Shown here: positions 1-40,676 of the stretch, in pieces
How positions within the stretch are numbered: the first letter of the stretch is position 1
Layout of the letters: each line of letters begins with the position of its first letter
DNA from: Lachnospiraceae bacterium
GTDB lineage: Bacteria > Bacillota > Clostridia > Lachnospirales > Lachnospiraceae
NCBI GenBank assembly: GCA_022794265.1
Contig: JAAWEK010000020.1
Location: 1-64,000 of the forward strand
DNA length: 64,000 nucleotides
Reading direction: 5' to 3'
Position numbers and translations under genes: made by a program
The notes under the pieces: model-generated
What the model saw: the letters and a program-made list of their open reading frames with translations, nothing else
The model's database searches: none
Told to the model about the DNA's origin: nothing

Positions 1-3000
1 ATATATAACCCTTCCATCCTCTGCCAGAAGTTCATCTCCAACGATAAGGTTTGAAGCCGCCTTCCATTCCCCATTATACCTGCTTCCATTTTCTTCTACA
101 ATGTTCTTCACATAAAATGGATGAAACATCGTAGTCCTTATGTCATCCCCCTCCGACGTAATCACATGAACCAAAACATCCGTCTCTGTCACAGACACAT
201 TCGTTACTTTCGCAAGCACTTTTTCATTAATTTCCGTATCATATGACCAGACATAATCCCCGTCTACTATCTCATCAATCCGTCTCTCACCATCAGCCGT
301 ACTTACCAGTGTATCTCCCGTAAAACACTGACTTTTTAATGTAAACAATGATACTGCCAACCTAAGTGATTCAACTATTATTTTTTCCGGATCACCACTC
401 TTAACTGCTTCTACAAATGACCCCATATCCTGAGCTACACCTAATACCTTTAGCACCATTGTCGCCGCTTCTCCCAGCAAAGCTTTTGCAGCACAATTAA
501 TCAGTGTCTGGGTTATCATACCCTTTGCTATTGCCACTACAAGCCCGAATATATTTGCCTCTCCCGCAAATATCAGCCGCACCTGCTGCGCCACATCATA
601 CATCGTCACCGCCAGATTCGCCCAGGACATTATTTTTTTCACATTAAAATACGGCACAATCACACTGTTAATCGTACTCTGTATACTCTGGGCCACACTC
701 AATTCCGCCAGAGAAAAATACCCGCTTGGGTCCGTATACATCACCGGATTTGCATTTGCATACAGATACTTATGTAAACTAACAGGATTATCCAATGTCC
801 CCGCATACGTATCCATACTTGTAAATGTACCTGTTTCAGGGTTCATATACCTTGCCCTTAAATAATACAATCCGGTCGAAGCATTATACTGCTCTCCCGT
901 ATACAGATAATCATTCTCCGTGGTTCCGGTCTGCTTTAACAGATTTCCAAAGGCATCATACACATAAGTATCCGTTATAGCACTTACAACAGCACCGACT
1001 TCGGATACCCCGCTCTCTGCCAGCGCCGTCACCGAACCGTGTCCGTCCATAATATACTGTTTCTTCACAGACACATTCCCCATACCGGATACTAAGGAAC
1101 CATTATTATTATCCCTATCCCATATATCCACACAGATTAATTCTGTTCCTCTGGTATAAAACTTCTCCACACCATAAGAACCATCCCCGGACTTCTTCAG
1201 CTCCAAAGCCACCTGTGTCAGCGCATCAAAGGTATCATTCAGATAATAAACCGCCTCCTCCTCATTTACCTGCCTGGATACCCGGTTTCCCTCATAATCA
1301 TAGGTATAACTTTCAATTGTAACACTGTTCCCGCTGCTTACCGTAGCCGTAACCAGCCGGTTCTCTCCATTATAAGTATAAGTCTTATCCCTGCTTCCAC
1401 CATGCTCCGATACCAGATTACCATTGGCATCATAGGTATACGTTACAGGCGTTCCGCCATTCTCTGCCCTGGTCAGCTGGTTCAGATTATTATAGGCATA
1501 AACCGTCTTACCGGTTTCCACACTCTCGTCCAGACCGCATACCTCACCAGTCACTGCAGTCTCCTTTGATATCCGGTTGCTCACCGAATCATAGGAATAT
1601 TGATTCCGAATATTACCGGACCATAAAATATCCGCAAAGGAATTTCCTGTTTCCACACTGCCGGAAACCAGCTGCTTTAATTTCTGACTATCCAAAGACA
1701 CGCTTTCCGTAATATAAATCGTCTCCTCCATCAGTCTCAGCAGCTTATCATACCCATAATCCGTCCAAATCACTCTGGCATTCTCATCATCAGCAGAATC
1801 CCTGACGACCTCAACTGCCTGGGTTTTCTCTCCCGCATTACCGTAAACATAACCATAATACAACAGTATATTGGAATCCTTATCCGTTACCGTTTCATGG
1901 ATAAGCCTTGAACACTTATCATATACATAACGAACCGTCAGTCCTCCCTCATGTTTTACCACCGTACGGTTGCCAAGAGCATCGTACTCATACAAGGTTG
2001 CACTTCCGTCATGTCCCACAACTTTTACCATCCGTTCCATAAGGTCATACTCATAGAAAACGGTGCCCAAATCCACGCCATTTACATTGGTAGTAATGCC
2101 GCTTACCCGGTCTCCTGCTGTATATGCATATTTTATGATTCCCAAATCATAGGTTGACTTAGACGCAAGCCTGCTGTATTCATCATAAGCATAACGAATG
2201 ACTCCCAGGGAATCCGTAACTGCCGCCAGTCTTCCCAGTTCATCATAGGCATACACAGTATCCCCGTCCGTATTGGAAACCTTAAGGAGCCTCCCGGTTT
2301 CATCATAAAAATATTCCGTGGATTTACCTGCAAAATCCTTATATCCGGTCTGATAACCGTTTTCGTCATAGACAAACTCTGCCGTGGCTCCTGCGGAATT
2401 CACTGTGCGGATTAACCTACCGTCCCCGTCATATTCATAACGGGTCTCATTGCCGTTGGCATCGGTAACTTTGGTAAGTTCATACGTCTCATCATACTCA
2501 TAGGTATAAACACCGCCCATGGCATCCGTTACCGAAGTAAGATTGTCTGCATTATCATAGGTATATTTCGTGCGGTTGCCGTTTCTGTCTGTCCGGCAGG
2601 TAACTCTTCCTCTGGCATCATATTCCGTTTTTTCAGATGTTCCGTCCGGATAAATGATATCCGTCTGGTTTCCGTTGGCATCATATACAAAATTAAATTC
2701 ATTTCCTAATCCGTCGATGGTCTTTGTATGCAGAGAACGCTGGTCATATTCAAAAATTGTAACAATTCCATAAGCATCCGTAACAGAAGTATTCCGGTTC
2801 ATACTGTCATAGGTATAAGCCGTCACTCCGCCTGTAACTGATGTATAAATCAATACATTTCCATTGGCATCATAAGTATAACTCTCTTCCGTTCCGTCCG
2901 CATAGGCCTTTTTTAACAACCGGTTTAACTTATCATATGTCATTGTAATCCGGATTCCCATACGGCTGACTGCTGAAATATTATTTCCATTTAAATCATA

Positions 3001-6000
3001 TGTAAAATGCTCCGTTGTTCCATCCGGATATGCCACCATAATCAGATTATCCTGATTATCATAGGTATACTCTGTGCGGTTACCATCCGGTGTAATCATC
3101 GCTGTCCGGTTATTGCGGAAATCATATTCATAACCTGTCACTGCTCCCGTATTACTGATAACCGCAGTTACATTTCCTGCACTGTCATAACTATAGGTTG
3201 AGGTATATTCCCTGACCTGTCCGTCTGCTTCGGTTCTCCTTACGGTTACTCCGTTACACTTTCCTTCCGAATCATAGTTGTATGATGTGGTATTGCCATT
3301 TCCGTCTGTCTGAACCGTAAGATTTCCTTTAGAATCATAGGTCAGTGTCTGAACCAATCCAATACTGTCGGTTATGCCGGTGAGCTTTCCATCTTTTGCA
3401 TAAGATAACTCTGTTTCATTTCCAAGGGAATCTGTCAGCTCCGTCAGGTTTCCCTTATCATCATAATCCATTGTCATCACAATATTATCGGCAAACGAAA
3501 TACTGTTTACAAGATTTAACGTATTATATTCAATGGTCTCCGTTACACCATCTGCTGATGTCAGAGATTTTAAATTATTATCCCCGTCATAATTATAAGT
3601 CGTTACATTCCCCCTTGCATCCGTCTTTGTCAGTACATTATTATTTTCATCATACGTACTGCTTGTAACATTCCCCAGCGCATCCACAGTCTGCAGAATA
3701 TTTCCGTTGTCATCATAGGTATACACTGTAACATTTCCCATCTTGTCCCGTACAGTTTCCGTTTTACCCTCCAAATCATGGTCATACTCTACCCGGTTGC
3801 CCTCAGCATCTATGACAGCCACCAGTCTGCCATTCTCATCATATTCATTTCTGGCCACTGCCATTCCTGACGGGTCAATAATATCAATCAGATTATGGTC
3901 ATCATCATAGGTAAATGTAACGGTACGGTCCGCCTCATCCGTTACAGCAATTAGATTATCTTTACTATCATAGGCATAGGTCATGGAAGTAATGATATTT
4001 CCTACACTTCCCCGCTCTTCGGCCTTTATGATACGTCCCTGACGGTCTCTGGTAAATATTACTCCGTTACCGTCGGAATGTTTCAACCCGTTCTTGGAAA
4101 CAGATACCGTATTTCCGTTTGCATCCGTCATCTTTAACAAACCATGGCTGCCGTCCAGGTACAGCTTCGTTCCGTCTTTCCTTGTCAGAATATAGGAGCG
4201 GTTTTCAAACAGTCCGTCATCCCCCAGTAATAGCTGGTCGCCATAAACCAGGGCATGATTATCGCCGTTTAATTCCAGTTTCACATTTTTATCTGTTACA
4301 CACAGAAAAGAAATTTCTAACTCATAAATCGGAATCAGCCCCTGCCGTTCCGGTGAAAGCTTCAGCTCAAACCTGTCGCTGGTTCCGTCGCCGTATGTCA
4401 CGGTAATATCATGGCATGCGGTCTGTGTCATATAATAACCGGTAGAAAGTTTATTTCCCTGCTGAATCATCCGGTATCCCTGGGTAATATCCGAACTTTC
4501 CGTCAGTTTCACGCTCTGCATGCCAAGTTTCCAGCCCACACCAAAATCTCCGGAAGATTTATTTCTGCTGTCATAACTTCTGGTCACAGTAAGAGGAATA
4601 CCGGACACGCTGGCGCTGATATCCGTAAAGCTCAGATTCATATTTCCGATTTTCAGATTGCCTTCCACGTTTATGCTGCGCTCCACACGCATACGGTTTC
4701 CGCCGTTATCTACTACGGTAAGACGCAGCGCATATCTTCCGTTTTCCAGCATGGTAGTATCCAGTTCCCCCAGCACTCCATCTGTCACCGGCTCCGTTTT
4801 ATATGCAATCTGTCTGTACTCATCGGTTCCCTCCATACGATATTCCAAAATATAGTAAGCCATACTGGTTTCATCTGCAGCGGTTCCGGTAATCTCTGTC
4901 TTTGTACGAATGCTGCTGTCAGCCTCCGGTGTAAGAAAATAAGCTGCTGGGTGAACCCTGTCCGATTTATCAAAAAAACGGACGGTCTGTGATACCGTTT
5001 TTGTCTCTCCGTCTATCACGGCAGACAGAATTACTTCCGCTTCCCCTGCCGAATCAGCCTTAATATCTGCACTTCTTCCGAAAATGGTTACATCGGCGCC
5101 CTCAGCTGTAAGCGTTACATTCGAAGCAGATTCCGGATAAGTCATATATGCCTTTACCGTTTCCCCTACATTTGCAGTAAATCCTGAAAGAACAAGATTT
5201 AATTCCTTATCCTCAGTGTCTCCCGTACTTCCGCCGGTCTCCCCCTGATAACCGTCATCAATCATTCCCTGTTTCGTGACGGTCACCATATAGTCAGCCG
5301 TCCGCTTATTTCCTGCATGGTCTTCTGCTATTATCCGCACCCCATAATTTTCCTGACTGAAGCTTTCGTATGTATATTCTGCAATCCTTTCCTCAGATAT
5401 ATTCTCAAATCCATGAGCAATGGTAATCGGGGAAAGCAGGGTATTTTCATATTTTCTTCCTGTTAGAACCGTATATTCTTTTAGATTTTCATCATAAATC
5501 GTACCGGAAAGAACTAACTGTAATCCGCTGCCGGTAATTGCCGCTTTTAATTCTCCTGCGATTACCGGAGATATGGTATCCTCCTCTCTTCCGATTTCTC
5601 CCTTTTCTCCGGTTTCACTGCTTCCTTTAGTGTATGTAAAGGAAGCCCCCGATACACAGGTATTTCCCTCTGTATCCCAAGCCTTTAATTCAAGTATATA
5701 TGTACCGCTTTCCAGATTTTCTGTAGCAATGCTGCCAATCCGCTCATTCAAAACATCTTCTGTTCCAGCGGCTATTGTAGTTTTATCCCCTTCCTGCCCG
5801 GAAGGATACAAAACTAATTCATATCGTTCCAGTTTCGTCTCGTCCGTTACACTTCCTATAACTGTGATTTCCTTATTGTCTTGGGTAAGAAGAATATCAC
5901 TGATTTCTGCCTGTGGCGGTATCCGGTCCGATACCGTTTCTTCCACCGTAATCAGAAGTGTAGCCACACTTCTAAGACCTGCCATATCTTCTGCCGTGAT

Positions 6001-9000
6001 TTCTATTCTGTATACACCATTTATCAGTTGATCTGTATCGATTACGGCAATTACATCATTAATAATCTCTTCGGTTCCGCTACCAATCACCACCGGTTCC
6101 AGACCTTCTGTATCTGCTGCTTCGCTTTCATTTTCTGCTGTGCCTGTCTTAACATATGTTCTTGTAACGGTATAAGATTTTAATTGTTTATTATCGGTAA
6201 TACTTCCGATTATATCTGTTTTTCCACTGATTGCACCGTTGCCCGGAGACAGAATATCAATATTTGGTGGTGTTACATCGCTCTTATCCAGAATTGTAAC
6301 GGTTCTTGTCTCAGTGGAGGTATTTTTTCCAATATCTGTAGCAATAACGGTTATCTGGATTTCTCCTGCACTTTCTGCGCAAAAATCATATCTTCCATAA
6401 ACGTTCCCTAATTTATCTCCATTGATATAAACGGAAAAATCGGCAATACCGTAATCATCCGATGCTGAAGTTTCAATATAAAAAGTTTCTCCCGCTTCAA
6501 CCGTATCACTGCTCACTGTCAGGTCTATAACCGGCGGATTGGTATCTTCCGGCTCTGTAAAGACTCTGGCCTCTGATGTCTTGATGGCAGCCATGGCCGG
6601 ACGGCTTACGGTTCCCTCAATATCGGTTACAATATATTTCACAAGATAAGTGGTTCCCATTTCCGCTTCTGCCGGAAATCTTCCTTCTGTCCACTCTGTG
6701 TCACCCAGCTCCTTATAATAGAATTTTTCATCCCGGATTCCTTTTCTGCTGTCGGACGGGTGATCAGTATCCTCACTTTCATATATAACATTTACCATAC
6801 ATTTATTTCTGTCAGACGGTGACTGTGTAACCACCGCTGTCACCTTTGCTGTTGGACGATGCTGCGCTAAAATAAGTTTTTTATATTCATCTGTATCTGA
6901 CCATTTGATATAGGACTCCAGGCCAGGATTTCCTCCGGCCGGATTATCGCATACCCTGTGGCTTATTTCATATGCTCCGGCTTCGGTAAACATAGTAATT
7001 GGAGTTTCTCTTTTTATTTCCTGTACAGGGGTATTGCTTTCTCCAAATACAGAACCATCATATATATAATTCCACTCTTCCGCACCCACCGGATCATTGT
7101 CCGGGTCAAGATAAGTTTCCGTATATATCACTTCTTCATCGGTAGCCAACGTGTAGCCGATAGAATAATCTTTACTGTCAATATCCGCAATAATTGCCGA
7201 TACAATTCTGTTTACGCCTTCTTCCACAGAGACCTTATAATTTTCTTCTTCTCCCTCAGTACCTTCTTCATACCTTAGTTCAACGGTTTCCCCTTTTCCC
7301 TCCAAAGTATTCTGCAGGGCATTATATTGGTCAATTGTATTATCATTTCCTATTCCGAAAAACATGGCATCATTTCGCAGCATTGCTGAAGCAACGTCTG
7401 CCAGTCTGTCATTATCTGATAACTCCGGTACGGAAGTCTCGCTTAAATTTATAACATAATGATTTGTCCCCGGCGTCCATATATGGTTATTCACCACATC
7501 AGACAAACTTTCTCCGGTAATGGTCTGCATAACTATATTTTTAAAAGTAAAAAATGACTGCTGTCTGCAATTATGACTTATATGACTGATAATCGGACCA
7601 TAACCGTATGCCTCAACCCCGTCCTCTGGAAGAACGTATTCATTTACAATTAATTTATCACCGTCATACACCGTAAGAATATTTTTATCCACAATAATTT
7701 TAAAATGATGCTCCGCATACAAATCCGATATTTTAAACGTCTGTAATAATCTGCCTGTTTTTTGTACCGTAGAATAGGAGCCATTTCTAAACTTAGAGAG
7801 ATCCGTTTTATTCATCTGAACCAGTTTTAATCCGCTTTGCGTAACAAGAATACAATATCCCTGTATATAATTTTCTTCTTCCGATATCAGGGTATTAAAC
7901 AGAAAGCCGCCGCCCTCCATGCTGTGCCAGTCCGTTTTGTCTCTCTGCAAATCAAACTCAAACACTTTCCTGCTGCTGTCTTTATCATCAATATATAAAA
8001 AATCCTTTAATGGCGCCCGAAAATAACCTAACATCTGTATGTCTTTGCCGTCATACAGAATATGTTTCGGTAATTTCTGTCCATTAGAATCCTGATAATC
8101 ATAGTGATCAAATTCTTTCCAGGCAAACGTATCCTGTGCAGTAAGCGCAGATGAAGAAACTGTGCTTACCTTTGCCTCAATCCCCAGCTCTTTCAGCTTA
8201 TCTTTTACTCTTTCACCAGCGCTTACATATTGATTCAGTATATCCCGGTCCGCATTCCCTACCGTAAATATAATATCCGCAATCTTACTCTTCTCCAATG
8301 ACATGGAAGATTCCGGCGCCTGATTGACAATCTCAAATGTTTTTGATATTTCACCGCTTAAATATTCCGTTTCATGGACAAGCCCGGGAATAGTGTCCGT
8401 ATATGTTTCCTGCACATACAGCTTTACCATGTATTTCCCTACCGACGAAAGGTCATAGTTTACCTCTGTTTCATTACCAGCGGTCTGACTAATCAGTTCC
8501 TCTTCCTCAAATGCTCCGTTTCCGTTTTCATCATGATACAGTTTGTATATGCGTTTTGCAATCTCATCTCCCGCCTCCGAAACAGACCTATCAGTAACGG
8601 AAATATGGGCAATTCCCCGATTGTCCCGGAGATATATGGCATCCTCACTGTTAAATTTAAAATCTGCAACCGGCGCTTTATCCTCCCCAATAGTAATGTA
8701 TTTCTCCGCAGAAAATATATCCGTTCCATCGGTTGCGGCTACTGTGATGCGATAAGTTCCTGCCTCTTTAAATATTAATTCCCTATGATTCCACCTGGTT
8801 TTGGAATCATCGTATAATACCAGCCCTGTATTATCATTTCCTTTCTCAATTGTAATCCTGGTTTCATCCGGTAATAAAAATTCTGTTTCTCCCTGTATAT
8901 CAAGGTCTATGGCAATTTTCCTGTTTACCTTCTGATTACCTGATACATTTAACTCTATACTGTCAATCCGGGTGATATGCCTCCTTGGAACATAAGGGCA

Positions 9001-9783: not shown

Positions 9784-9821
9784 ATGTCCCTCCGTATTTT
9801 TTATCAATTTGTAAATATATT

Positions 9822-9839
9822 GATACAATTAATTGTATC
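9822..9839. promoter_or_regulatory. 18-bp perfect palindrome in Rhs leader, candidate operator
   Basis: GATACAATTAATTGTATC is a perfect 18-bp palindrome placed about 8-25 bases after the predicted Rhs transcription start. The position suits a roadblock-type repressor site. There is no loop, so an RNA hairpin is less likely. No regulator can be assigned. Confidence 0.4.
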
Positions 9840-9853
9840 TATCCATTGTATTT

Positions 9854-9882
9854 AATTTAACAATATTTGTATTTAATGTCAA
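9854..9882 (-). promoter_or_regulatory. Candidate sigma-A promoter of the Rhs gene
   Basis: On the minus strand a perfect -35 box TTGACA (9882-9877) is followed by a 17-base spacer and TAAATT (9859-9854, 4/6 match to TATAAT). The predicted start near 9847 leaves a leader of about 63 bases before the Rhs ATG. It would let the Rhs gene be transcribed apart from the upstream operon. Confidence 0.5.
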
Positions 9883-9974
9883 ACCTTTTCCATCGACATT
9901 ATTCGACAAAATCCTCTTTTTCTCAAATAAATTTTCCAATCATTCTCATGGCTTTTCCCTATAATACAACTCCT

Positions 9975-12698: not shown

Positions 12699-12760
12699 AC
12701 CATTTATCCTTTCCTCTTTTCTTTCCAGAGCGTGTAACCAATCCGTGTTTATTTCAGTCT

Positions 12761-14824
12761 TTACTCCGCAGACTGAACCATCTTAATCTGCAGCATATCC
12801 GTTTCAAACTCTCCTTTGCAGAGCAATTGCTTCTCTTTGTCATACAGGTATATTCTCATATCCTGAAAGGAATCCTGTAATATACTGAGATACCGGAACT
12901 CATCCGATATAGGAATCAGCGCCTCACTGAAAACTGCCTGTTCCTCCTTTGTAACCAGACGGTAATATGCTGCTCCGGCAAGTTCCGCTTTAATTTTCAG
13001 CTCTGACGTCCCGCTGCCGGTATCCTTACATTCATAGGTTCCCACAATGATATTGCTCTGGGGTTTGACGGCAAATCCGCCGCTGATATTCAGCTTTCCG
13101 TGATATACCGATGTATTTATCTCACAGTCATCCACGAAATCCTCATCCAAATAAAATCTAACAAACGCTGATTCCACATTTTCTAAATCCAGTGCCAAAT
13201 GCCGGATAACAGAAGAAACATCGGTCCGCTCCCCAATCCGGATTCCGTTTACCCACAATTCATAAAAATTAACCTCTGGTTCGAAGTTCTCCGGAATGGA
13301 TACACAGAATAAAAACAGGTTATCTTCCACTTTACTCTGAATAGTATACCAGGCGCCTTCATCCCCCTCTCTGATAATAATGCTGTCGCCGCCATCCACA
13401 GAATCCCCGCTGACATCCGTACCAGACAGCAAAGCGGTAATGCCGCCGCAGGTAAGCCGGTCATAGGAATATAACAATTCGGTATATGCCGCCAGGGAAT
13501 CCAGAATGTCCGTCTGGGTTTCTTCATATTCCGCCTGTAGTGCCTGTACCTCATCATACCCGGCTTCTCCCAGTTTGTTTTTTGCCGATACTTTCTGATA
13601 ATCCCTTTTCAGTGCATCTGCGTTATTTTTCAGGGATAAATATGCGTTCCGGGCAGTCACTATATTTTCAAATCCGGATTTTACCGCCTTTTCCTTTGCT
13701 TTCTGTATGGAAGTCTGTTCATTTACGGCAGCCGTATACTCCTTTGCCGCAGTCAGCAGTGCATACGGCTCGTCTTCTATATAGCGGATACCGGAAATCT
13801 GGCCCTTAAACCATTCTTTCGGAATTTTTATAAACAGTATTCTTATATTACCGGCCCAGGGAGCATCCACTGCTTTTTGCATGGCATCATATGCGTTTTT
13901 AAAAGCATCATAATCAATTTCCTGATTACCTTTTGCCATGTTCACATAGGATTGAATGTAACTCATGTTCCCGCCGTATTGGGTTCTCATCAGGGATTCA
14001 TATGTATTTAGTGACGTAAGCGCCAGACTGGCCGACAGTTTGGCCTCATAATATTCCTGGTCCATATCCAGTGTCCTCTGAAGCAGACCGTTTAGATGAT
14101 TCCGTCCTATTTCCGCCGTAACCAGCGGGCTGTCAAAGCGATACCCTGTTGAAACATCAATTCCAATCAGACCGGACAAATCCTCTTTTGCGTTTTCAAA
14201 GCTGCGCATAACTGCCGCCGTATCCGATTCCAGCTTATTCAGAGAAGACTGCATTTTATCCACGTCTTCCTGAACCCCATTCCCTGTCAGAACCCGGGCT
14301 TTATTTCTACTGATATCCTTTTTCAGTGTTTCCATCCGCTTCCGGTTAAATGAAATCTTTTCCTGATATACATATAACTTTACAAATAATAATTCTGTTT
14401 CTTCGTATATCTCATACACTACGTCACTTAACCGGTGTTTCTTTGCTGTAATATCTGACTGAATCTGCAGCGGTTTATAAGTAAACTCATATTCCTCCGC
14501 CAGGTCAGCCTTTTCCGGAAATTTAAAACTCAGCAACGGAGTCCAGCGAAATGTGGACATATTATGCTTTTTTAAAGCAATGGATTTTACTGCCTGTTCA
14601 TATTTAACCTGCAACAGCGTAATATCGCTTTTAACCGATTTATAATCCCTGCTATTCCTTAATGCCAGATTCTTTGCCTGGGAAACCGTCAGAATCTTTT
14701 TTCCGCTGTATGCATACACATCCATGTATTGCATATGGAAAACCGGTTGAAATATGCCGCCCGTACAACAAAACAACAGCGCTGCCATCACCAGTATACT
14801 GAGAATTTTCCTGTAAAAACCCAT
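12761..14824 (-). CDS. TolC/OEP-like coiled-coil exported protein
   Basis: The protein has 687 residues from the ATG at 14824, which has AGGAG nine bases upstream; an upstream in-frame GTG would put that site inside the gene. A signal-type hydrophobic segment (residues about 7-24) precedes ILTVSQAKNLALRNSRDY, the opening typical of outer-membrane-efflux (TolC) proteins. Long helices follow (about 40-240 and 360-450) in the paired arrangement of TolC repeats. The last 200 residues are beta-rich and not TolC-like. A TolC-like fold is odd in a single-membrane Gram-positive cell, where it may span the wall or act as a structural sheath (inference). It lies between the MORN and stalk-domain genes. 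Confidence 0.8.
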   Translation of the reverse strand: MGFYRKILSILVMAALLFCCTGGIFQPVFHMQYMDVYAYSGKKILTVSQAKNLALRNSRDYKSVKSDITLLQVKYEQAVKSIALKKHNMSTFRWTPLLSFKFPEKADLAEEYEFTYKPLQIQSDITAKKHRLSDVVYEIYEETELLFVKLYVYQEKISFNRKRMETLKKDISRNKARVLTGNGVQEDVDKMQSSLNKLESDTAAVMRSFENAKEDLSGLIGIDVSTGYRFDSPLVTAEIGRNHLNGLLQRTLDMDQEYYEAKLSASLALTSLNTYESLMRTQYGGNMSYIQSYVNMAKGNQEIDYDAFKNAYDAMQKAVDAPWAGNIRILFIKIPKEWFKGQISGIRYIEDEPYALLTAAKEYTAAVNEQTSIQKAKEKAVKSGFENIVTARNAYLSLKNNADALKRDYQKVSAKNKLGEAGYDEVQALQAEYEETQTDILDSLAAYTELLYSYDRLTCGGITALLSGTDVSGDSVDGGDSIIIREGDEGAWYTIQSKVEDNLFLFCVSIPENFEPEVNFYELWVNGIRIGERTDVSSVIRHLALDLENVESAFVRFYLDEDFVDDCEINTSVYHGKLNISGGFAVKPQSNIIVGTYECKDTGSGTSELKIKAELAGAAYYRLVTKEEQAVFSEALIPISDEFRYLSILQDSFQDMRIYLYDKEKQLLCKGEFETDMLQIKMVQSAE

Positions 14825-14856
14825 ACCATCAGCTCCTAACACAATTTGAAAGAATA

Positions 14857-16080
14857 TTATACCCCTTCACATTTCCAAAACACAAACCGCCCTTCTTTTT
14901 CCGTACAGTAGAAGGTATACAACAATCCGTTATTCTCAAAACTGTAAATATATATTTCTCTGGTTTTATCATAATCCGTCACTTCAATGACATCCCGAAA
15001 TGAAGAATCACTTTTCATCTCAATCTTCTCAAACTCCCGGTTTCCTGAATCAACCAGCAGATTCACCGCTACGCATTCCATCAGGGTCAAATTGGTATTG
15101 CCCTCATAAACCGGTTCCCCCAGATATTCCCTGATTCCGGGTATAGTGGTAAACCTTCTTTTCTGCAGACAAAAGGTATCTTTAAAAACAATGACTCCTC
15201 CAGCCCTGTAAGTCTCCTCTAATGTATCCTCACCGCTGATTCCCCAATAGAGCGCCTGGATATCCGGCATTACCACCCCAAACTCCTGCCCTGAGGAATA
15301 AACGATTCTCTCTCCGGTATACATATCCGAAATTTCCTGTGTGGTTTTTCCCGGTATATCACTATATAACAATTCTCCGCTACTAAAATTCCCGGTAAAA
15401 ACCGGATTTCCACTTTCATCAAATAATTTTCCCGTACCGTTTTTTTCGCTCTCAGAAAATTCTCCCTCATATTCTTTTACACCGTTATCCCGGTACAAAA
15501 CCCCTGTACCCGAAAACTCATTATCCTTAAACTCACCCTCATACCATAACATCTGATTGTTATAATAGCGCTTCCCGGTTCCGTTATACATATTTTGAGC
15601 AAATTCTCCGCTATAAACAAGATTTCCTTCTTTACCGTATAGATTTCCTTTTCCTTCCACCACTCCGTCCTTCATACTTCCTTCATATGCCCGGTATCCT
15701 GATTTTCCCAGTATCCTTACCTGCCCCGAATGAAAGCGCAACGGAACTGCATCATACCGGTAGGTTAAAATTCCACTATCTTTTCCTGAGTTTCCCATAA
15801 TGTTTACCGGCTTCATGCCGGTTATATAAACGATGCAGACCAGCCCCAGAAAAACAACCACGGCAAATGCCAGTTTTTTGCTGACCATCCACTTAAAAAC
15901 CGTATAATAATCATCCTTATCCCTGGGTTTTACATCCAGAAGACCGGTTAAAAACTTTTTTATCCGGATTAACAGATGCTCTTTCACATACCGGGGATTT
16001 GTATACGTCCAGATGAATGCCAGTATTTTTGCAAACTTTTCCCTGACGATATTGATATAAATCCTTAAAACTGACAGCAT
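14857..16080 (-). CDS. Membrane protein with MORN repeats
   Basis: The protein has 407 residues, with an ATG preceded by AGAGG. A basic cytoplasmic N-terminus of about 70 residues leads to one membrane helix (LAFAVVVFLGLVCIVYITG, about 72-90). Outside it come five or six MORN-type repeats (about 130-235; YEGSMKDG, YSGEFAQN, YEGEFKDN, YEGEFSES), a 23-residue toxin_2/MORN pattern usually forming a beta-sheet scaffold. A separate C-terminal domain of about 170 residues is not recognised. It is 24 bases from the upstream sensor gene and 32 bases from the TolC-like gene, so co-expression is very likely. Its role in the locus is unknown. Confidence 0.88.
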   Translation of the reverse strand: MLSVLRIYINIVREKFAKILAFIWTYTNPRYVKEHLLIRIKKFLTGLLDVKPRDKDDYYTVFKWMVSKKLAFAVVVFLGLVCIVYITGMKPVNIMGNSGKDSGILTYRYDAVPLRFHSGQVRILGKSGYRAYEGSMKDGVVEGKGNLYGKEGNLVYSGEFAQNMYNGTGKRYYNNQMLWYEGEFKDNEFSGTGVLYRDNGVKEYEGEFSESEKNGTGKLFDESGNPVFTGNFSSGELLYSDIPGKTTQEISDMYTGERIVYSSGQEFGVVMPDIQALYWGISGEDTLEETYRAGGVIVFKDTFCLQKRRFTTIPGIREYLGEPVYEGNTNLTLMECVAVNLLVDSGNREFEKIEMKSDSSFRDVIEVTDYDKTREIYIYSFENNGLLYTFYCTEKEGRFVFWKCEGV

Positions 16081-16103
16081 GAAACCTCTCTTTCCCGCAG
16101 ATT

Positions 16104-18776
16104 TTAAATATCCGCAAATAAATTATGCCGGATTTCCCCGAAGTCTCCGGCATTCAGCATAGCTTCACAGGTAAACAGATACCATCTGGCAATACCGTCC
16201 TCCGGACATTCCTTTAAAACTGCCGAAAACTTATTTCGTGCCAGATAAAAATCGTTTTGATAAAACATCTGAATTCCCTCCTGAAATCTTATATCCGTTT
16301 TTTGTCTGTTATTTTTTTCATGTTCCGAATATACCTCCAGCATTTCATAAAGCTGAAATGTCTGATTCAGGGATTCTGATACCACATAACCGATATACCG
16401 CACAGAAAATCCCCGGCGCTGTTTCCGAATCACGGAATCGGTGACCGCCATGCGGACTCCCATCTTTCTCAGTTCCGGTATAAACCGGCTTAACTCTTCA
16501 ATTTCCCGGGAAGAAACAAAAGGAAAAATCTGTTCTTCTGTTCCTGCCGCCCCGAATAACACACTGGTTTTATGAAGGAGCGCAACCGGCCGGCACCCGT
16601 CAGCAGCCATTACCCGTATGGTATCAATTCCGAATGCAAAGGCTTTCTCTGCAGAATCGGGAAACAATATGTTAACCAATGACAGATTACAGTCGTTTGA
16701 CAGCAGAATCCCCAGGTTTTCCTCACAGTTCCTGTTGATGATCCGAAAACAACGGTTGATAAATTTCATTTGTTTCGCCGGATTTCTGCCATATAGTTCT
16801 TTTTCACCGTCTGCGGATATCATGCCCACTGTTCCGCTGATATATTTCATATCCCCGGGCTGTATCTTCATTACGGAATCCCGGTTCATTAATTTTTCTA
16901 TTTTCTTTGGGACAAAACGATAATAGGATTGGAGAATACCTTCCATTTTGTAATTTTTCTTCTGCAGCGCCTGACACATTTTTTCAAACGAAACCCACAT
17001 GGAGCCGATTTCATGTTCCGGCAGTTTTATTTTTATAAATTTATACCCTGGTTCGTAAATCCTTCCTTCCGCCGCCCGGACCATGGCCTTTGATAACCGC
17101 CTGACAGGACGGAGGGCAATTTGAACGGAAATAACCAGCAGCACCACCGTAATAATCAGAATACACAAGGCTGCCGTCAATAACCGTACCACCGCCTCTT
17201 TTTCTTTCCGGCCCATATCCTGCATGGATACTGCCGTTACCAGACAGAGCCTTGGCTCTGTGCCTCTGTTCAGCGGCGCCGCAGTAACGGAATAAGTTCC
17301 CTTTTCCGTTTCCAGCACTTCCGAAATCCTTTCATTCTGCTCCATGCTCTGGCAGACCAGTGATACGGCCTTTTCGGAAAATACGGCGCCGGAGGAACTT
17401 CCTGTTATGATATGGTCTGTTCCGCTTCCAAGAAAGTAGGATTGTCTGCTGTCAGTGTCAAAATACAGCAGATATTGAAGGGAACCGGACCATTCTCCGG
17501 AATCTTCCGCCAGATTGTCCAAAAAAAGAACATTTAGCTTCCGATAATCTTCACTATGATAAAAAGTATATAGAAAATCATTATTTCCACCGTCTTTTTC
17601 TTCCATTATCTGTCCAAATCTGATTTCCTCCAGCAGACTTATCTGTATCTGATTACTTAGAGCGGCAAAATCCTTTCGTTCCCCTTTCATGGCATCCCGG
17701 GTGGCAGTATATGACGAATAAGTTAACGCTGCAATCAGTACCGCTGCCATTTCAACGGATATCATGGAAATCCTTACCGCCAGATGCCTTGATTTCCCAT
17801 ATCCCCAACTGAGAAGAAAAATGACAAACACTGCAGAAAAATAGATAAGGGTTGCCACCATAAACCAAACCGTTGGCGCGTGTTTCTGTTTTCCCGAATC
17901 ATTCAGCGTTTTTGTTCTTGGCATAAGAATACCATCTTCCAATGTGTACAACAGAATATTTCCATTTTTTTCAGCGGCCAGAATATGAATTTCCCCCTGT
18001 TGCTCTCCAACCATGGATATCACGGTAAATTCTTCTGTTTTTATAGAGTCACCCTGACCGGAGTATAATATATGTTCCCTCTGACTATACCAGAAAAGAG
18101 TTTTGTCCCGCAGCGCAACAGCCGTACATCCTCCTTCCGCTACCCCGTTGATTCTGACCGGTTCCCCCTCCCCAAGAGACCAGACATTTCCTGCGCAGCT
18201 CAATACATAAGAATCGTCGGTTCCGTACAGGATATCCTTGGGCTGTTCCGTCATATCCCTCTCCAGTATTAAATTCATACTTCCGGGTTCCGAACGTAAA
18301 TCATATTCATATATCTCAACTTTTTCTGTTTCCGCTGCCACGCTTAAATATAACCTTTCCTCCCGGAATGATAGCCGTTTTATCTCTATATTTTTATCAG
18401 TTTCGAATATATTCTTCCCTTTTCCGTCTGTCACAGAATACTTTATGATTTTCCATTTTTTTTTACCGGATTGGGTGGCGTAAAACCGGAATAATATATA
18501 AATATCATCGTTATCCACTGCCATATCCGTAATCTTTACCTGTTGTCCACCGTTATTGTGATGAAAAGAAGCCGTCAGGCTCATTCTGTCACTCCTGTCC
18601 AGCTTTACGATATCCGACCGGTGTTCCGTATTTTTCACCATATAGATAGTTCCGTTTCCGTCTCCCCGCATCCACCTCTCAAACTGATTCAGATTTAACT
18701 CAAATCTCTGATTGATATTAAAAATAAGAACAAAATACAAAGCTGCAATTGCCAGAATCACAATTAATTTTTTCAT
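16104..18776 (-). CDS. Multi-pass sensor with HAMP and degenerate class III nucleotide cyclase domain
   Basis: The protein has 890 residues from the ATG at 18776, which has GGAGG upstream. It starts with a membrane helix, then about 260 extracellular residues with propeller-like repeats. Two helices (about 290-340), a second extracellular segment and another helix (about 506-530) follow. Then come a HAMP-like linker and a region aligned with adenylate cyclases: YYRFVPKK near 620 and QPGDM. The metal-binding aspartates of real cyclases are missing. The usual FSDIRGFT is replaced by MISADGEKEL, and the GDAIMALFP region reads NCNLSLVNILFP. The C-terminus looks TPR-like (FYQNDFYLARNKFSAVLKECPEDG). 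It is probably a pseudo-cyclase signal or scaffold protein rather than a cAMP producer. Confidence 0.82.
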   Translation of the reverse strand: MKKLIVILAIAALYFVLIFNINQRFELNLNQFERWMRGDGNGTIYMVKNTEHRSDIVKLDRSDRMSLTASFHHNNGGQQVKITDMAVDNDDIYILFRFYATQSGKKKWKIIKYSVTDGKGKNIFETDKNIEIKRLSFREERLYLSVAAETEKVEIYEYDLRSEPGSMNLILERDMTEQPKDILYGTDDSYVLSCAGNVWSLGEGEPVRINGVAEGGCTAVALRDKTLFWYSQREHILYSGQGDSIKTEEFTVISMVGEQQGEIHILAAEKNGNILLYTLEDGILMPRTKTLNDSGKQKHAPTVWFMVATLIYFSAVFVIFLLSWGYGKSRHLAVRISMISVEMAAVLIAALTYSSYTATRDAMKGERKDFAALSNQIQISLLEEIRFGQIMEEKDGGNNDFLYTFYHSEDYRKLNVLFLDNLAEDSGEWSGSLQYLLYFDTDSRQSYFLGSGTDHIITGSSSGAVFSEKAVSLVCQSMEQNERISEVLETEKGTYSVTAAPLNRGTEPRLCLVTAVSMQDMGRKEKEAVVRLLTAALCILIITVVLLVISVQIALRPVRRLSKAMVRAAEGRIYEPGYKFIKIKLPEHEIGSMWVSFEKMCQALQKKNYKMEGILQSYYRFVPKKIEKLMNRDSVMKIQPGDMKYISGTVGMISADGEKELYGRNPAKQMKFINRCFRIINRNCEENLGILLSNDCNLSLVNILFPDSAEKAFAFGIDTIRVMAADGCRPVALLHKTSVLFGAAGTEEQIFPFVSSREIEELSRFIPELRKMGVRMAVTDSVIRKQRRGFSVRYIGYVVSESLNQTFQLYEMLEVYSEHEKNNRQKTDIRFQEGIQMFYQNDFYLARNKFSAVLKECPEDGIARWYLFTCEAMLNAGDFGEIRHNLFADI

Positions 18777-18836
18777 ACCTTCCTCCATTCCGCCAAACCG
18801 TTCCCCATCCCCGCCGGCATCCCTTTCCGCCAGTCC

Positions 18837-19676
18837 TTATATCAGTGTCTCTGTTCCTATTTTCTTAAATGGGTTAATAAACAAACGGAACAGTCTGACT
18901 TCGCCGGATAGTATCTGTGACAATAGTATGACCAGGGTCAGCAGTATTAAAATAATACAGGCGAACAGCAACAGACGGAATAAAATATCTTTTTTACTTT
19001 CCAGAAAATGTTTCCATTTAGTCCGCAATCCGGGCTTTTTTTCCGATTCCCCGGTTAGTATGATATCTCTGTATAATTCTGAAAAATCTGTATATCCCCT
19101 TTTATATGTTTTTTTCCTGATCAAATCATAGCTTTTTCCTTTTTTTCTGCGGCAGGGTTCCAGCAGACTTACAATAATCTCCCCACACCGCCTTGCACAG
19201 TCCCGGCCAGTGCGGTTATCATCATAGCTGCCCAGGTCCAGAAACCAGGAAAAAGATATACTGTTATCCCTCTGAATCTGTATATTCTTCTGTGTCAATA
19301 TTAAATACAATAATTGAGGCGGAATTTTTGATACCATACACTGAATGACAAGATTTATGCATATTACTTCACATTCCTCTGGAGAAAGCAGATTCCCCAT
19401 GTAAAATTCGGTCAGGGGACGTTCATTTTCATAGGGAAGCACCAGCCCCAGAGAATCCTCTGCCGAGAAATACTCCGGGCATAAAGATTCTTCTGTTTCA
19501 CAGGTTTCAAATGCTTTGATGATCTGTCCACCAATCTGCCGCTGTTTTATCAGTATCACGGTGTAATAAAGATTTCCCGTAAATTTGATGTCCCTGCATA
19601 CATACACTTCATTGATTTCCGAAGCGAATACCTGACTGACTACCATAAGAAGCCGCTTTTCCGTCTTAAAAGTCAT
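18837..19676 (-). CDS. Pseudokinase-like single-pass membrane protein
   Basis: The protein has 279 residues. Residues 1-215 are cytoplasmic and read like a degenerate protein-kinase fold: an N-lobe of strands with YYTVILIKQ, then helices in LSPEECEVICINLVIQCM and a loop IQIQRDNSISFSWFLDLGSYDD in the place of a catalytic/activation segment. No HRD, DFG or glycine loop is visible. One membrane helix (about 230-252) is followed by a 27-residue outer tail. The layout recalls EssB/YukC of type VII secretion (pseudokinase, then helix) but with a much shorter outer part. The match is by eye only. The gene starts 16 bases after the preceding stop, with a GGGGG ribosome site. Confidence 0.65.
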   Translation of the reverse strand: MTFKTEKRLLMVVSQVFASEINEVYVCRDIKFTGNLYYTVILIKQRQIGGQIIKAFETCETEESLCPEYFSAEDSLGLVLPYENERPLTEFYMGNLLSPEECEVICINLVIQCMVSKIPPQLLYLILTQKNIQIQRDNSISFSWFLDLGSYDDNRTGRDCARRCGEIIVSLLEPCRRKKGKSYDLIRKKTYKRGYTDFSELYRDIILTGESEKKPGLRTKWKHFLESKKDILFRLLLFACIILILLTLVILLSQILSGEVRLFRLFINPFKKIGTETLI

Positions 19677-19692
19677 TTTCTGCGCCCCCTGA

Positions 19693-21468
19693 TTATTTTA
19701 TCTTGTTTTTAACCACCGCATAAGCATAAGTACACAAAACCGGCATATCGGTACAGAATATCCTGATTTCATAAACCCCTTCCCTGGCTGGCGCCGTATA
19801 TACACCATCCAGAGTTATCTCACCGCTTCCCGGCTCCGTCAGCTCATATGTAACACTACATGGCTCCATATTATGGAACCGTACGTTAAAATAAAAGCTT
19901 TCCTTTGTTCCCAAAACCACCGTTGTTTTTTCCGGTGATATGCTTTTTCCGGTATAATATCCGATTCTGTCCAACTCATCGCCGGAATCTGCCTTTATGG
20001 CTACCCAGCGCAATGTCAGAATAAAAAATCCCGTATCTTTCAACAGTTTTGCAGCTACTACAAAACTTCCTTTCTCATTTAAAACTTTTACCGCAGTTTC
20101 TACTTTGGATACAGGAACTTTTTCTTTAAACAAATCGGGATTTCCGTATACTACAGATTTACACGGCTTACCCATGGTATTATCTTCCTTCACATACTCA
20201 AACCCGACATTAACAAATACATTTCCTTTTCCCAGTCCGTGCATAATTTCTCCGGAATACCGGACATCCCCTTTTCTCATCTTATCACCCAGAGGTATCT
20301 CCACCGTTCCGGTAGCTATCATCGGACTGCAGGATGTTTCCACCCTGCCATCCTGCTCCTTTTTCCCCATTTCTGAATTGTCAGCGACAGGAAAGAAGGC
20401 TGTATCTTCACAAAAATATCTCTCATATTCCCTTCGTTTCTCTGCCTGTGACGGCGCCTGAAGATAAATTTTGACACCTTCCTCCACAGAAACAATCAGA
20501 TAATTTCCTCCAGTCCTTTCCAGATGTATATCTGCAAGTCTGATATATTCCCTGACTCCGGCCAGATTCTGCATTTCCAGACTTAACTTTCCCACTTCCC
20601 TGGTAATCAGTTCTTCGGGCAAAACGGAAGCCGCGTTGATTTTTATCGGAACAGGATTTCCCGCTTCTATCTTTTTGTCCCCCTCAAATGCCTGTAAGGA
20701 ATCTGTTTCAATGACAATATTAATATCGTCATGGGCAGATTCCTGTACCTGTAAAGGATACGGAAAATACTTCTCCTCTCCTGGAGACAGCATAATATAT
20801 CCCGTATCGATGAGTAATTCATGAGTCCCCTGGGAATTCAGCAGTTCCGGTGTCTGTATCCGGCATGATAAATGAAAAGAATCCGTACTTTCCTTCTTGT
20901 TTGTTATCTTTAAAAACAGATTTATACCCCTGCCCCTGCACACAGTAACCGGCACACTGAGTTCTGCTATATAACCGTCCCCTGCTGCCAGAACCGACTT
21001 TGCTAAAAACTCCTGATCCGGTTCATATACGGATTCCACCGCAACAGTATCCATCAAAAACAGTTCGTAGCCCTCGGATATGTGGTTACATTCATAATCC
21101 TGAGCGCTTTTATTCAGTGCATATACCGGATGAACTGGTTCTTCCCTGTATCTCACACACAGACTGGCCCTGTCCGATTCCAGATTTTCAAAACCTTCAA
21201 TAGCCGACAGTTTCCTGACCGCTGCTTTATCCACGACTATTTCTCTTCCGTACCCGTCAATGGCAACGCCGCTTTCGATCATAACCGATAAATCATCCAG
21301 ATTAAAAACACTCATTCCGCATATAATGCCGGAACCGAATAATACCTGATTTAAAAATTTTCTTTTATTATTAAAATAATCCTGTTCTGCGGTAAAATCT
21401 GCAGAAGTCAGCATCTTTCCCGCATAAAAACGATTTCTTTCAAAGGGAAATAATTGATTATCAGACAA
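19693..21468 (-). CDS. Protein with contractile-injection-locus-type N-terminus and Ig-like C-terminus
   Basis: The protein has 591 residues from the TTG at 21468, which has AAGGAGGG nine bases upstream; an earlier in-frame TTG would enclose that site. The N-terminus contains NRFYAGKMLTSADFTAEQ, then DYFNNKRKFLNQVLFGSGII and CGMSV. It matches the pattern NRFYxGKLLTAxDFxxEQ...NRxLHGxGIVCGL known from proteins of unknown role encoded with extracellular contractile injection systems and other phage-tail-like loci. The middle is beta-rich; the last 80 residues look like a bacterial Ig fold (GSGEITLDGVYTAPAREG). There is no signal peptide. No sheath, tube or baseplate genes occur in the window, so the protein may serve a different machine here. 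It is the first gene of the seven-gene run. Confidence 0.72.
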   Translation of the reverse strand: MSDNQLFPFERNRFYAGKMLTSADFTAEQDYFNNKRKFLNQVLFGSGIICGMSVFNLDDLSVMIESGVAIDGYGREIVVDKAAVRKLSAIEGFENLESDRASLCVRYREEPVHPVYALNKSAQDYECNHISEGYELFLMDTVAVESVYEPDQEFLAKSVLAAGDGYIAELSVPVTVCRGRGINLFLKITNKKESTDSFHLSCRIQTPELLNSQGTHELLIDTGYIMLSPGEEKYFPYPLQVQESAHDDINIVIETDSLQAFEGDKKIEAGNPVPIKINAASVLPEELITREVGKLSLEMQNLAGVREYIRLADIHLERTGGNYLIVSVEEGVKIYLQAPSQAEKRREYERYFCEDTAFFPVADNSEMGKKEQDGRVETSCSPMIATGTVEIPLGDKMRKGDVRYSGEIMHGLGKGNVFVNVGFEYVKEDNTMGKPCKSVVYGNPDLFKEKVPVSKVETAVKVLNEKGSFVVAAKLLKDTGFFILTLRWVAIKADSGDELDRIGYYTGKSISPEKTTVVLGTKESFYFNVRFHNMEPCSVTYELTEPGSGEITLDGVYTAPAREGVYEIRIFCTDMPVLCTYAYAVVKNKIK

Positions 21469-21558: not shown

Positions 21559-21577
21559 TAAAGATTTGTTAAAGAAT
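21556..21577. promoter_or_regulatory. TAAAG-N6-TAAAG direct repeat, candidate response-regulator box (copy 1)
   Basis: Two TAAAG units start at 21559 and 21570, an 11-bp period typical of tandem OmpR-family winged-helix binding. The site overlaps the stop codon of the histidine kinase gene and centres about 44 bases upstream of the predicted start of the Rhs operon. It matches a second site at 26876-26897 in 18 of 22 positions. Confidence 0.5.
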
Positions 21578-22465
21578 GTCTATATATGTCGGAAAAAATA
21601 TGTAAATCTTCATTCCATGTCCGGTGCTGCTGACAGCAAAAATATCTCCATTATGAGCTTCTATGATTTCTTTTACAATATACAATCCGTTGCCAGAACC
21701 ATGGCCTGCATTGGAGCCCTGAAAATTTTCCTCGAATATCCGAAAAGTTTCTTCTGCTTTCATGCCTTTTCCATTATCTTTAAATTCCAGCATCACCTGA
21801 TTTTTTATTTGAATTAAAGTCAGGGTAATACATCCTGGGCAGCCCATATATTTTATGGCATTGTCAAACAGATTGTTAAGAACATTTGTTATCTGAATCC
21901 GGTCTCCTTTGATCAGAACCGGAGAATCATCAAACATAAACTGAAGTCGGATTTTATTTTGCCGTAACAGATTTTCCATATCCCAGGCAGTTTTTCTCAC
22001 AATCTCTGCCAGATTTACAGATTCCATCATATAGACCGGGTCTCCAATCCGTTTTTGAATCTGCATAAACGAGCGGCTCACCATTCTATTTAAATATTTA
22101 GCGTTATCACATATTTTTTCCAGATATTTACGATAAGTTTCTTTTTCTATGCTGTCATTTTTTATTAATATATCACAATATCCCCATATAATTGCCAAAG
22201 GCATTCTAAAACCATGAGACAGGGAACTTCGGATTCTCTCAATTTCCCTGTTATACTCCGCCTTAATCTTTTCTGTTTCCCTATGAATCCTGATTCCATA
22301 CATATATTTTAAATGCAGAATGACTGCAAGCAAAGCCAGAATAATAATACCGGCTGCTGCCAATATAATGTTCTCAGGTTTCATTCCTCCACTACCTTTC
22401 TTTTGCTTGTCAGTTGAAGCCCTTTTCTCTTTTTGTTTTAAGTATTTCATATCTTTATTTATCAT
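21569..22465 (-). CDS. Sensor histidine kinase
   Basis: The protein has about 298 residues. One membrane helix near the N-terminus (IILAAAGIIILALLAVILHL) is not paired with an extracellular sensor domain. The dimerisation segment has the phospho-acceptor His in LSHGFRMPLAI. The ATPase domain has an N box (NVLNNLFDNAIKY), G1 (DNGKGM) and G2 (GHGSGNGLYIVKEI). All key residues are present, so it should be active. The ATG at 22465 overlaps the response regulator stop by 11 bases, which implies translational coupling; an in-frame GTG at 22483 and an ATG at 22450 are alternatives. With no obvious sensor domain it may read membrane state or a partner protein. Confidence 0.92.
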   Translation of the reverse strand: MINKDMKYLKQKEKRASTDKQKKGSGGMKPENIILAAAGIIILALLAVILHLKYMYGIRIHRETEKIKAEYNREIERIRSSLSHGFRMPLAIIWGYCDILIKNDSIEKETYRKYLEKICDNAKYLNRMVSRSFMQIQKRIGDPVYMMESVNLAEIVRKTAWDMENLLRQNKIRLQFMFDDSPVLIKGDRIQITNVLNNLFDNAIKYMGCPGCITLTLIQIKNQVMLEFKDNGKGMKAEETFRIFEENFQGSNAGHGSGNGLYIVKEIIEAHNGDIFAVSSTGHGMKIYIFFPTYIDIL

Positions 22466-36181: not shown

Positions 36182-36254
36182 GCGCGACTAGCTCAGTTGG
36201 TAGAGCACCTGACTCTTAATCAGGGTGTCCAGGGTTCGAACCCCTGGTCGCGCA
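36182..36254 (+). tRNA. tRNA-Lys (anticodon CUU), copy 2; prophage integration site
   Basis: It is identical over 73 bases to copy 1. Its last 42 bases plus the following terminator are repeated at 44955, so this gene is the attachment site of the inovirus element. It is intact because the repeat restores its 3' part. Confidence 0.98.
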
Positions 36255-36306
36255 CTAGAAGTACCAGTTTTGAAGACGCAAGAGCTTCGGGGCAGGTGCT
36301 TTTTTT
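36213..36306 (+). repeat. attL: 94-bp direct repeat (left end of prophage)
   Basis: Identical to 44955-45048. It covers the tRNA from the anticodon loop to the 3' end plus the terminator. Such tRNA-3'-end duplications mark integration by a tyrosine recombinase. Confidence 0.95.
36260..36306 (+). terminator. Terminator of tRNA-Lys copy 2 (inside attL)
   Basis: AGTACC pairs with GGTGCT, and GTTTTGAAG pairs with CTTCGGGGC through several G-U pairs; a run of seven T follows. The same structure, with eight T, ends attR at 45048. Confidence 0.85.
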
Positions 36307-40668: not shown

Positions 40669-40676
40669 TATATCTA

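What the first reader, a model, noticed from the sequence alone, without database searches (positions are those of the whole stretch)
1..21468. Seven-gene locus that may build, control and display a giant Rhs-HINT protein in a Gram-positive cell
The seven genes are co-directional with gaps of 16-191 bases. Seen directly: a contractile-injection-type N-terminus, pseudokinase-like membrane protein, degenerate cyclase sensor, MORN protein, TolC-like protein, stalk-domain coiled-coil protein and an Rhs-HINT giant. From family knowledge: Rhs proteins are usually exported by T6SS, contractile systems or the Wap pathway, and none of those machines is present. Inference: this is a separate undescribed export or display system in which several enzyme folds have become scaffolds.
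Basis: partly seen in the sequence, partly recalled or inferred. Interest (0 to 1): 0.9.

Follow-up and report, generated by a model that had tools for sequence, protein, structure and literature searches.

The report
Envelope module of contractile injection machine
Six of the seven genes are not a separate export system but a conserved, little-noticed part of a phage-tail-like injection machine in Gram-positive gut bacteria, probably its membrane anchor and trigger, while the giant seventh protein looks like an unrelated neighbour.

Summary
The seven ORFs exist, but the window starts at a contig end inside the Rhs gene. The same genome carries a contractile injection system (CIS) core on another contig. 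In relatives six genes, A-F, sit directly against that core: F is followed by the Pvc16 cap gene in 12 of 12 loci where both are contiguous. The membrane pseudokinase B has strong hits in 25 of 392 genomes of the order, and all 25 have the CIS sheath. A carries the N-terminal domain of CIS13, the fibre that anchors the Anabaena CIS to its membrane. B is a dead Hanks-type kinase: 0 of 38 members keep the catalytic Lys or Asp. C looks like a HAMP sensor with a degenerate cyclase domain. D is a membrane-anchored MORN protein. E (TolC-like) and F (stalk-like) look exported. The Rhs gene has a Sec-like signal and promoter-like sequence, paralogues elsewhere, and no counterpart there in relatives. 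Best reading: A-F anchor and gate a CIS at a monoderm envelope (function inferred). A separate Rhs display system is not supported.

The parts
19693..21468 (-). A, 591 aa: CIS13-like baseplate protein; N-terminal CIS13 domain (residues 9-146), long C-terminal extension, no TM
   Evidence: NCBIfam CIS13_fam 3.9e-24, 12 of 12 aligned homologues hit it; follows the Cis12-like gene in type-2 and type-3 loci
18837..19676 (-). B, 279 aa: pseudokinase domain, C-terminal TM helix, short tail ending in a conserved [IV]G[TL] motif
   Evidence: hhalign to five Hanks kinases prob 97, E 1.1e-10 over 212 columns; 0 of 38 keep Lys or HRD Asp; tail motif 36 of 38
16104..18788 (-). C, 894 aa: four TM-like segments, extracytoplasmic region, HAMP-like linker, degenerate cyclase-like domain and TPR-like end (the last by eye)
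14857..16080 (-). D, 407 aa: one TM helix at 70-88, MORN repeats C-terminal to it
   Evidence: MORN 1.8e-8; exactly one TM-like segment in 29 of 29 homologues
12761..14842 (-). E, 693 aa: signal-like N-terminus, TolC/OEP-like helical protein
   Evidence: OEP 6.8e-5, relative 3.7e-6; N-terminal hydrophobic segment in 20 of 21
9975..12698 (-). F, 907 aa: signal/TM N-terminus, coiled coil (by eye), Cu-amine-oxidase-N (stalk) domain
   Evidence: followed directly by the Pvc16 gene in relatives
1..9783 (-). Rhs-HINT giant, cut by the contig end; Sec-signal-like N-terminus; probably not part of the module
   Evidence: Pfam RHS_repeat 21 stretches, PT-HINT; promoter-like TTGACA-17-TAAATT in the 191-base gap
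21569..22483 (-). histidine kinase beside A; similar kinases lie near the CIS in several relatives
   Evidence: HisKA/HATPase_c
22455..23144 (-). response regulator (by sequence)
   Evidence: 48-50% identical proteins close to A in G005, G104, L051
23158..23574 (-). RsbW-type anti-sigma kinase (partner switch)
   Evidence: HATPase_c_2 1.7e-19; a STAS protein, its usual partner, sits in the CIS core on C10
24631..26796 (-). Cache-HAMP-SpoIIE phosphatase (partner switch)
   Evidence: SpoIIE 3.1e-48

Best explanation
A-F are one conserved module of a Bacillota contractile injection system. Shown here: they are syntenic, co-occurring and co-inherited with the CIS core, and their hydropathy pattern is conserved (A mostly without TM segments; B, C and D with them; E and F mostly with a signal-like N-terminus). 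Inferred: A binds the baseplate through its CIS13 domain and its extension docks on B and/or the cytoplasmic domain of C, holding the loaded CIS against the cytoplasmic membrane. B (dead kinase) and C (probably dead cyclase behind a sensor) pass an outside signal to the baseplate by conformation, not catalysis. D, E and F form an extracytoplasmic collar or conduit that gives the tube a way through the peptidoglycan. The flanking two-component pair and the PP2C/RsbW/STAS partner switch set expression. The Rhs-HINT gene is a Sec-exported polymorphic toxin gene that settled between F and the CIS core in this lineage.
For: Synteny: A is followed by B in 37 of 38 loci that hold both. F is followed by the Pvc16 gene in 12 of 12 contiguous loci; of nine such gaps measured, eight are -1 to 40 bases and the ninth (G145) spans a second F. 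Co-occurrence: 25 of 25 genomes with strong B hits have the sheath, and 0 of 361 sheath-less genomes have such a hit; 17 of the 25 have both on one contig, 8 to 21 kb apart. Across the phylum 6 of 7 B genomes have the sheath. Co-inheritance: distances of A, B and D correlate with sheath distances (r 0.90, 0.83, 0.92; 18 loci; 0 of 2000 permutations each). Anchor logic: CIS13 is the fibre-like protein whose TM helix anchors the Anabaena CIS (PMC8894136, passages); here A has none in 30 of 33 homologues and a TM protein, B, is its near-constant neighbour.
Against: No structure, interaction or imaging evidence; structure prediction was never available. A's CIS13 hit covers only the N-terminal quarter and is far below that model's cut-off. 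E and F are not recognised in the type-2 loci, so they cannot be essential to every such CIS. Twelve of 18 sheath-positive genomes across the phylum, and 6 of 31 in the order, lack a B hit; some of those sheaths may be phage or tailocin ones, not checked except for the regions mapped. A-like proteins occur without recognised CIS genes in G101, G127 and G095. Adjacency counts come from loci chosen because they held A, B or the sheath. In the window genome the CIS core is on another contig, so contiguity there is inferred.
Confidence: 0.6

Rival explanations
1. The CIS is a released (lysis-type) extracellular particle. B, C and D are a signalling set that controls production or lysis; E and F are envelope proteins that help release.
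For: C is a sensor by architecture; two-component and partner-switch genes flank the locus. For Gram-positive CIS, those of Streptomyces were found free in the cytoplasm, neither released nor membrane-attached (PMC10066040, passages).
Against: Signalling alone does not explain placement of B beside the CIS13-like gene, nor MORN, TolC-like and stalk proteins with conserved topology. No lysis gene was recognised among the proteins scanned with Pfam, which are only part of the loci.
Confidence: 0.25
2. An intracellular CIS that kills or restructures the producing cell under stress, as proposed in Streptomyces, with B and C as stress-triggered membrane receptors.
For: Sensor-like C and partner-switch stress genes nearby; Streptomyces has a membrane protein proposed as such an adaptor (PMC10066040, passages).
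Against: E and F, which look exported, would have no obvious role.
Confidence: 0.15
3. One reading: a dedicated system that builds, controls and displays the Rhs-HINT protein.
For: Rhs lies 191 bases after F on the same strand.
Against: No Rhs in 12 of 12 contiguous relatives; a full Rhs paralogue on C28 with no CIS gene seen by eye in the 35 kb fetched; own promoter-like sequence and Sec-like signal; the other six genes belong to the CIS.
Confidence: 0.04
4. The Rhs-HINT protein is a lineage-specific effector recruited to this CIS.
For: It sits inside the locus if C29 and C10 were contiguous; a HINT-like tail fragment and an Imm42 immunity gene lie at the start of C10.
Against: Sec-type signal and size over 3,200 residues argue against loading in the cytoplasm; paralogues elsewhere.
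Confidence: 0.12

Closest known systems
Extracellular CIS (PVC/Afp type; Pvc16, DUF4280 PAAR-like, CIS_tube, gp25, baseplate J)
   Same: Core genes on C10 and in relatives
   Different: Adds the A-F module; released-particle mode not shown
Thylakoid-anchored CIS of Anabaena
   Same: A has the CIS13 N-terminal domain and, in type-2/3 loci, follows the Cis12-like gene; the Anabaena Cis12 and Cis13 genes have consecutive locus tags, All3315 and All3316
   Different: There CIS13 has its own TM helix; here A lacks one in 30 of 33 and is followed by a TM pseudokinase
Haloarchaeal T6SS-like CIS
   Same: A CIS core with an extra conserved membrane protein tied to a T6SS mode; its Cis11 is closest to Bacillota ones (PMC11566945, passages)
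   Different: Their putative anchor has six TM helices and a 150-residue cytoplasmic domain; not compared by sequence here
EssB/YukC of type VII secretion
   Same: Pseudokinase plus single TM in Bacillota (recalled)
   Different: Profile comparison with three YukC-family proteins found no relation (prob 0.1)
WapA/Rhs polymorphic toxins
   Same: The seventh gene: signal-like N-terminus, Rhs repeats, HINT, immunity-type gene at the start of the contig thought to follow
   Different: Not a CIS part on present evidence

Membership tests
Contractile injection system (CIS) | Sheath and tube genes | tested here: met
   Own genome C10: sheath 7.2e-19; gp19-type tube 2e-5, below its cut-off, and CIS_tube 2.3e-19; adjacent to A-F in relatives
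Contractile injection system (CIS) | Baseplate, spike, PAAR-like tip, Pvc16 cap | tested here: met
   gp25, Phage_base_V, DUF4280, Pvc16_N; Baseplate_J; CIS12-like protein with TIGR02242 over its cut-off, CIS12_fam below its own
Contractile injection system (CIS) | Cis15 AAA+ ATPase | tested here: met
   C9:24587-26749, 49% over residues 437-695 of the ATPase of a relative's CIS locus; not in the core operon
CIS13 (NCBIfam NF053767) | Whole-protein score over the curated cut-off (370 bits) | tested here: not met
   85.6 bits, N-terminal domain only
CIS13 (NCBIfam NF053767) | N-terminal domain (baseplate-binding in Anabaena) | tested here: met
   residues 9-146; 12 of 12 aligned homologues match the model
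T6SS (types i-iii) | TssJLM membrane complex, TssK | not tested
   no search run for these genes
Membrane-anchored CIS | Particles anchored to a membrane in the cell | not testable with these tools
   needs cryo-tomography
Hanks-type kinase (active) | Catalytic Lys and HRD Asp | tested here: not met
   0 of 38; fold membership supported
EssB/YukC (T7SSb) | Profile similarity to PF10140 members | tested here: not met
   prob 0.1, only 3 YukC-type sequences used
Class III cyclase (active) | Cyclase domain recognisable with metal-binding Asp residues | tested here: inconclusive
   transitive homology, weak direct; loss of Asp residues judged by eye

The most novel reading that the evidence does not exclude
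Some Bacillota own a T6SS-like, membrane-anchored CIS with a purpose-built monoderm envelope apparatus: a Cis13-like adaptor, a pseudokinase and a pseudo-cyclase sensor as trigger, and a MORN/TolC-like/stalk conduit through the thick cell wall. It would be a Gram-positive counterpart of T6SS with an unrelated membrane complex.
Probability: 0.35. Interest if true: 0.87.

Novelty: new variant of a known kind. Interest (0 to 1): 0.64.

Why it matters
[quoted passage not shown] A conserved module of a cytoplasmic adaptor, membrane pseudo-enzymes and exported-looking TolC-like and stalk proteins, tied to one subset of Bacillota CIS, is a concrete candidate answer and makes the question testable by deletion and imaging in cultivable rumen bacteria. 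It also would place dead kinase and cyclase folds in a mechanical trigger.

Tried and rejected
Rejected: EssB/T7SS relation of B. Rejected: Rhs as an obligate partner. Rejected: CIS absent from the genome. Direct contig overlap between C29 and C10: none (no exact end overlap, 0 shared 21-mers in the terminal 400 bases), so adjacency rests on synteny, on the partner-switch genes split over the two contigs, and on the HINT-like tail plus Imm42 at the C10 end. Two other contig ends (C9 right, C10 right) also lie in Rhs genes and could in principle be the partners. PDB searches with alignments of A, C, B and C's C-terminal domain gave nothing usable. E gave one marginal hit (8qox, 0.0046, in the C-terminal extension of the longer homologues). 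PHROGs matched D (3e-12) and C (1.4e-5) only to families of unknown function. Literature: ten searches. 'contractile injection system' with 'MORN' or with 'pseudokinase' gave 0 papers; with 'Firmicutes' and 'Lachnospiraceae' one paper, where the term is only in the reference list. I found no description of the A-F module in these listings and passages of the held open-access library; subscription papers and bioRxiv preprints are not in it. No model exists and no fold search was run.
Full report
WHAT IS THERE. The window is the first 64 kb of contig C29 of a 2.88-Mb draft genome in 34 contigs. Named relatives of the locus are Lachnospiraceae and other Clostridia by record title. Seven minus-strand ORFs run from 21468 to the contig end.

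A CIS IN THE SAME GENOME. The sheath family PF04984 has one match, on contig C10. Around it (C10:7555-26124) is an ordinary CIS core: Pvc16_N, DUF4280 PAAR-like, sheath, a gp19-type tube protein (below its Pfam cut-off), CIS_tube twice, a baseplate-hub-like protein and a Phage_base_V spike, gp25, Baseplate_J, a CIS12-like protein and a STAS protein. The Cis15-like AAA+ ATPase is elsewhere, on C9.

SYNTENY. A search of 144 genomes (the window's own included) with A gave matches in 16; 13 loci came from named genomes, which may partly be the same organisms. Mapping fetched regions (summarised) shows three arrangements. Type 1: A-B-C-D-E-F-Pvc16-x-PAAR-sheath...baseplate (G088, G049, G005, G170, G290; G145, G295, G104 and L041 as far as fetched). 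Type 2: sheath...Cis12-A-B-D-Pvc16...C (G131, G030, G325, G301, G416 and others). Type 3: sheath...Cis12-A-B-C-D-E-F-Pvc16 (G340; G124 with B inverted). A is followed directly by B in 37 of 38 loci holding both; G124 is the exception. F is followed by the Pvc16 gene in 12 of 12 loci where both sides lie on the stretch (G088, G049, G005, G104, G124, L041, G396, G145, G170, G290, G295, G340). In ten further loci F or its fragment reaches the end of the stretch or is followed by nothing recognised (L040, L042-L048, L051, and a second G396 contig), so nothing can be said. In nine type-1 loci the F-to-Pvc16 gap was measured: -1 to 40 bases in eight, while G145 has a second F between. These loci were chosen because they held A, B or the sheath. 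No ORF of the regions mapped matches the genome's Rhs proteins at E 1e-20 (low-complexity filter on); one weaker match (G810, 679 aa, 1e-8) is about 17 kb away from the module there.

CO-OCCURRENCE. In the same 392 genomes of the order, B (profile A6) has strong hits, E at most 5.5e-19, in 25 genomes and the sheath in 31; all 25 B genomes have the sheath, and none of the 361 sheath-less genomes has such a B hit (recounted). Seventeen of the 25 have both on one contig, 8 to 21 kb apart; the other eight, the window genome included, have them on different contigs. Six sheath genomes lack B (three of one genus). Across 398 genomes of the phylum, 7 have B (E at most 1e-8) and 6 of those have the sheath (E at most 1e-40); the seventh (G545) has B near the end of a contig of a 450-contig draft and no sheath hit. 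Twelve of the 18 sheath-positive genomes lack a B hit. So the module marks a subset of Bacillota CIS, not all. Distances of A, B and D correlate with sheath distances over 18 loci (r 0.90, 0.83, 0.92; 0 of 2000 permutations reach each).

THE PROTEINS. A: residues 9-146 match CIS13_fam at 3.9e-24, and all 12 aligned homologues match the model, but the window's score is far under the model's whole-protein cut-off. B: seventeen genomes had only weak profile hits; I fetched five of these proteins and all five read as Hanks-type kinases (one tested by Pfam, 8e-41). B aligns to these five over 212 columns with hhalign prob 97, E 1.1e-10. None of 38 B proteins keeps the VAxK lysine or the HRD aspartate in either of two joint alignments with the kinases (in one of the two, only three of the five kinases themselves align their Lys there). 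Of 21 B homologues, 13 show one TM-like segment and 8 two; 36 of 38 end in a tail with [IV]G[TL]. C: four TM-like segments in 20 of 26 homologues; HAMP 4.5e-7 and a sub-threshold Cache hit in a relative. Its C-terminal profile A7 matches the G030 homologue at 5e-27, and that homologue matches Guanylate_cyc at 4e-7, over cut-off. Direct comparison of A7 with eight cyclases is collinear over 191 columns but weak (prob 2.3), and PDB and Pfam searches found no cyclase. D: exactly one TM-like segment in 29 of 29 and MORN repeats after it. E and F: N-terminal hydrophobic segments in 20 of 21 and 10 of 13, OEP and stalk domains. The TM calls are a plain hydropathy scan, not a trained predictor; sidedness is inferred.

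THE RHS GENE. It starts 191 bases after F, behind a promoter-like TTGACA-17-TAAATT (in the 601 bases scanned, six promoter-like sites on both strands against 2.4 expected in shuffles, and no terminator-like site). Its N-terminus looks like a Sec signal (by eye; hydrophobic segment). Other giant Rhs ORFs lie on C28, C9, C10 (right end) and C30. PT-HINT has one match in the genome, on C29, though the Rhs genes on C9 and C10 are cut before their ends. C10 begins with a short reading frame whose start resembles the end of a HINT domain (motif recalled), and shortly after lies an Imm42 immunity gene (1.5e-17). With the partner switch split over the two contigs (PP2C and RsbW on C29, STAS on C10; all near the CIS in G005), the simplest reading is that C29 and C10 are neighbours and a polymorphic-toxin gene lies between F and the CIS core.

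HOW IT MOST LIKELY WORKS. In Anabaena the N-terminal part of Cis13 binds the baseplate, and a C-terminal TM helix anchors the particle in the thylakoid membrane; without it, 9 of 14 particles floated free (PMC8894136, passages). Here A keeps the baseplate part, mostly lacks a TM helix, and is followed by a TM pseudokinase. I infer that anchoring has moved to B, C and D, that C's external part and HAMP transmit a signal, and that D, E and F act outside the membrane. In haloarchaea a conserved extra membrane protein accompanies CIS with T6SS-like action, and their Cis11 is closest to Bacillota (PMC11566945, passages). None of the mechanism is shown here.

KNOWN OR NEW. CIS in Firmicutes are known (PMC8213781, passages, which lists Paenibacillus jilunlii and Ruminiclostridium cellulolyticum among the sources of its tested eCIS-associated toxins), and Streptomyces CIS are studied (PMC10066040, passages). 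A survey of CIS across metagenomes reports that CIS-producing bacteria of the human digestive system belong to Bacteroidota (PMC12210884, passages). I found no account of the A-F module in ten searches of the held library (listed under tried and rejected). I file it as a new variant of a known kind: a CIS with a Bacillota-specific envelope module.

Noticed in passing
window 36182-45048: An integrated filamentous-phage-like element (integrase, Rep-like, Zot-like ATPase, small membrane proteins) about 8.7 kb long, flanked by a perfect 94-base direct repeat that starts inside a tRNA-Lys gene at 36182-36255.
   Followed up: partly
G000:C9:24587-29272 (L129): The genome's Cis15-like AAA+ ATPase sits away from the CIS core beside three ORFs not further examined.
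   Followed up: no
window 27043-29826: 927-residue secreted-looking protein with several starch-binding-type modules; an alpha-amylase gene lies shortly after the CIS core on C10.
   Followed up: no
L040, L042-L048: In these eight loci, several from rumen samples by title, the TolC-like protein E is enlarged to 1,042-1,312 residues.
   Followed up: no
G101, G127, G095: A-like proteins (one matching at both ends, two matching only A's C-terminal part) with no CIS gene recognised in the fetched stretch.
   Followed up: no
G340:C1:1666254-1667543: A single-contig genome with all of A-F after the core, whose B is 429 residues with a long acidic tail instead of the usual tip motif; G804's B also lacks the motif.
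   Followed up: no
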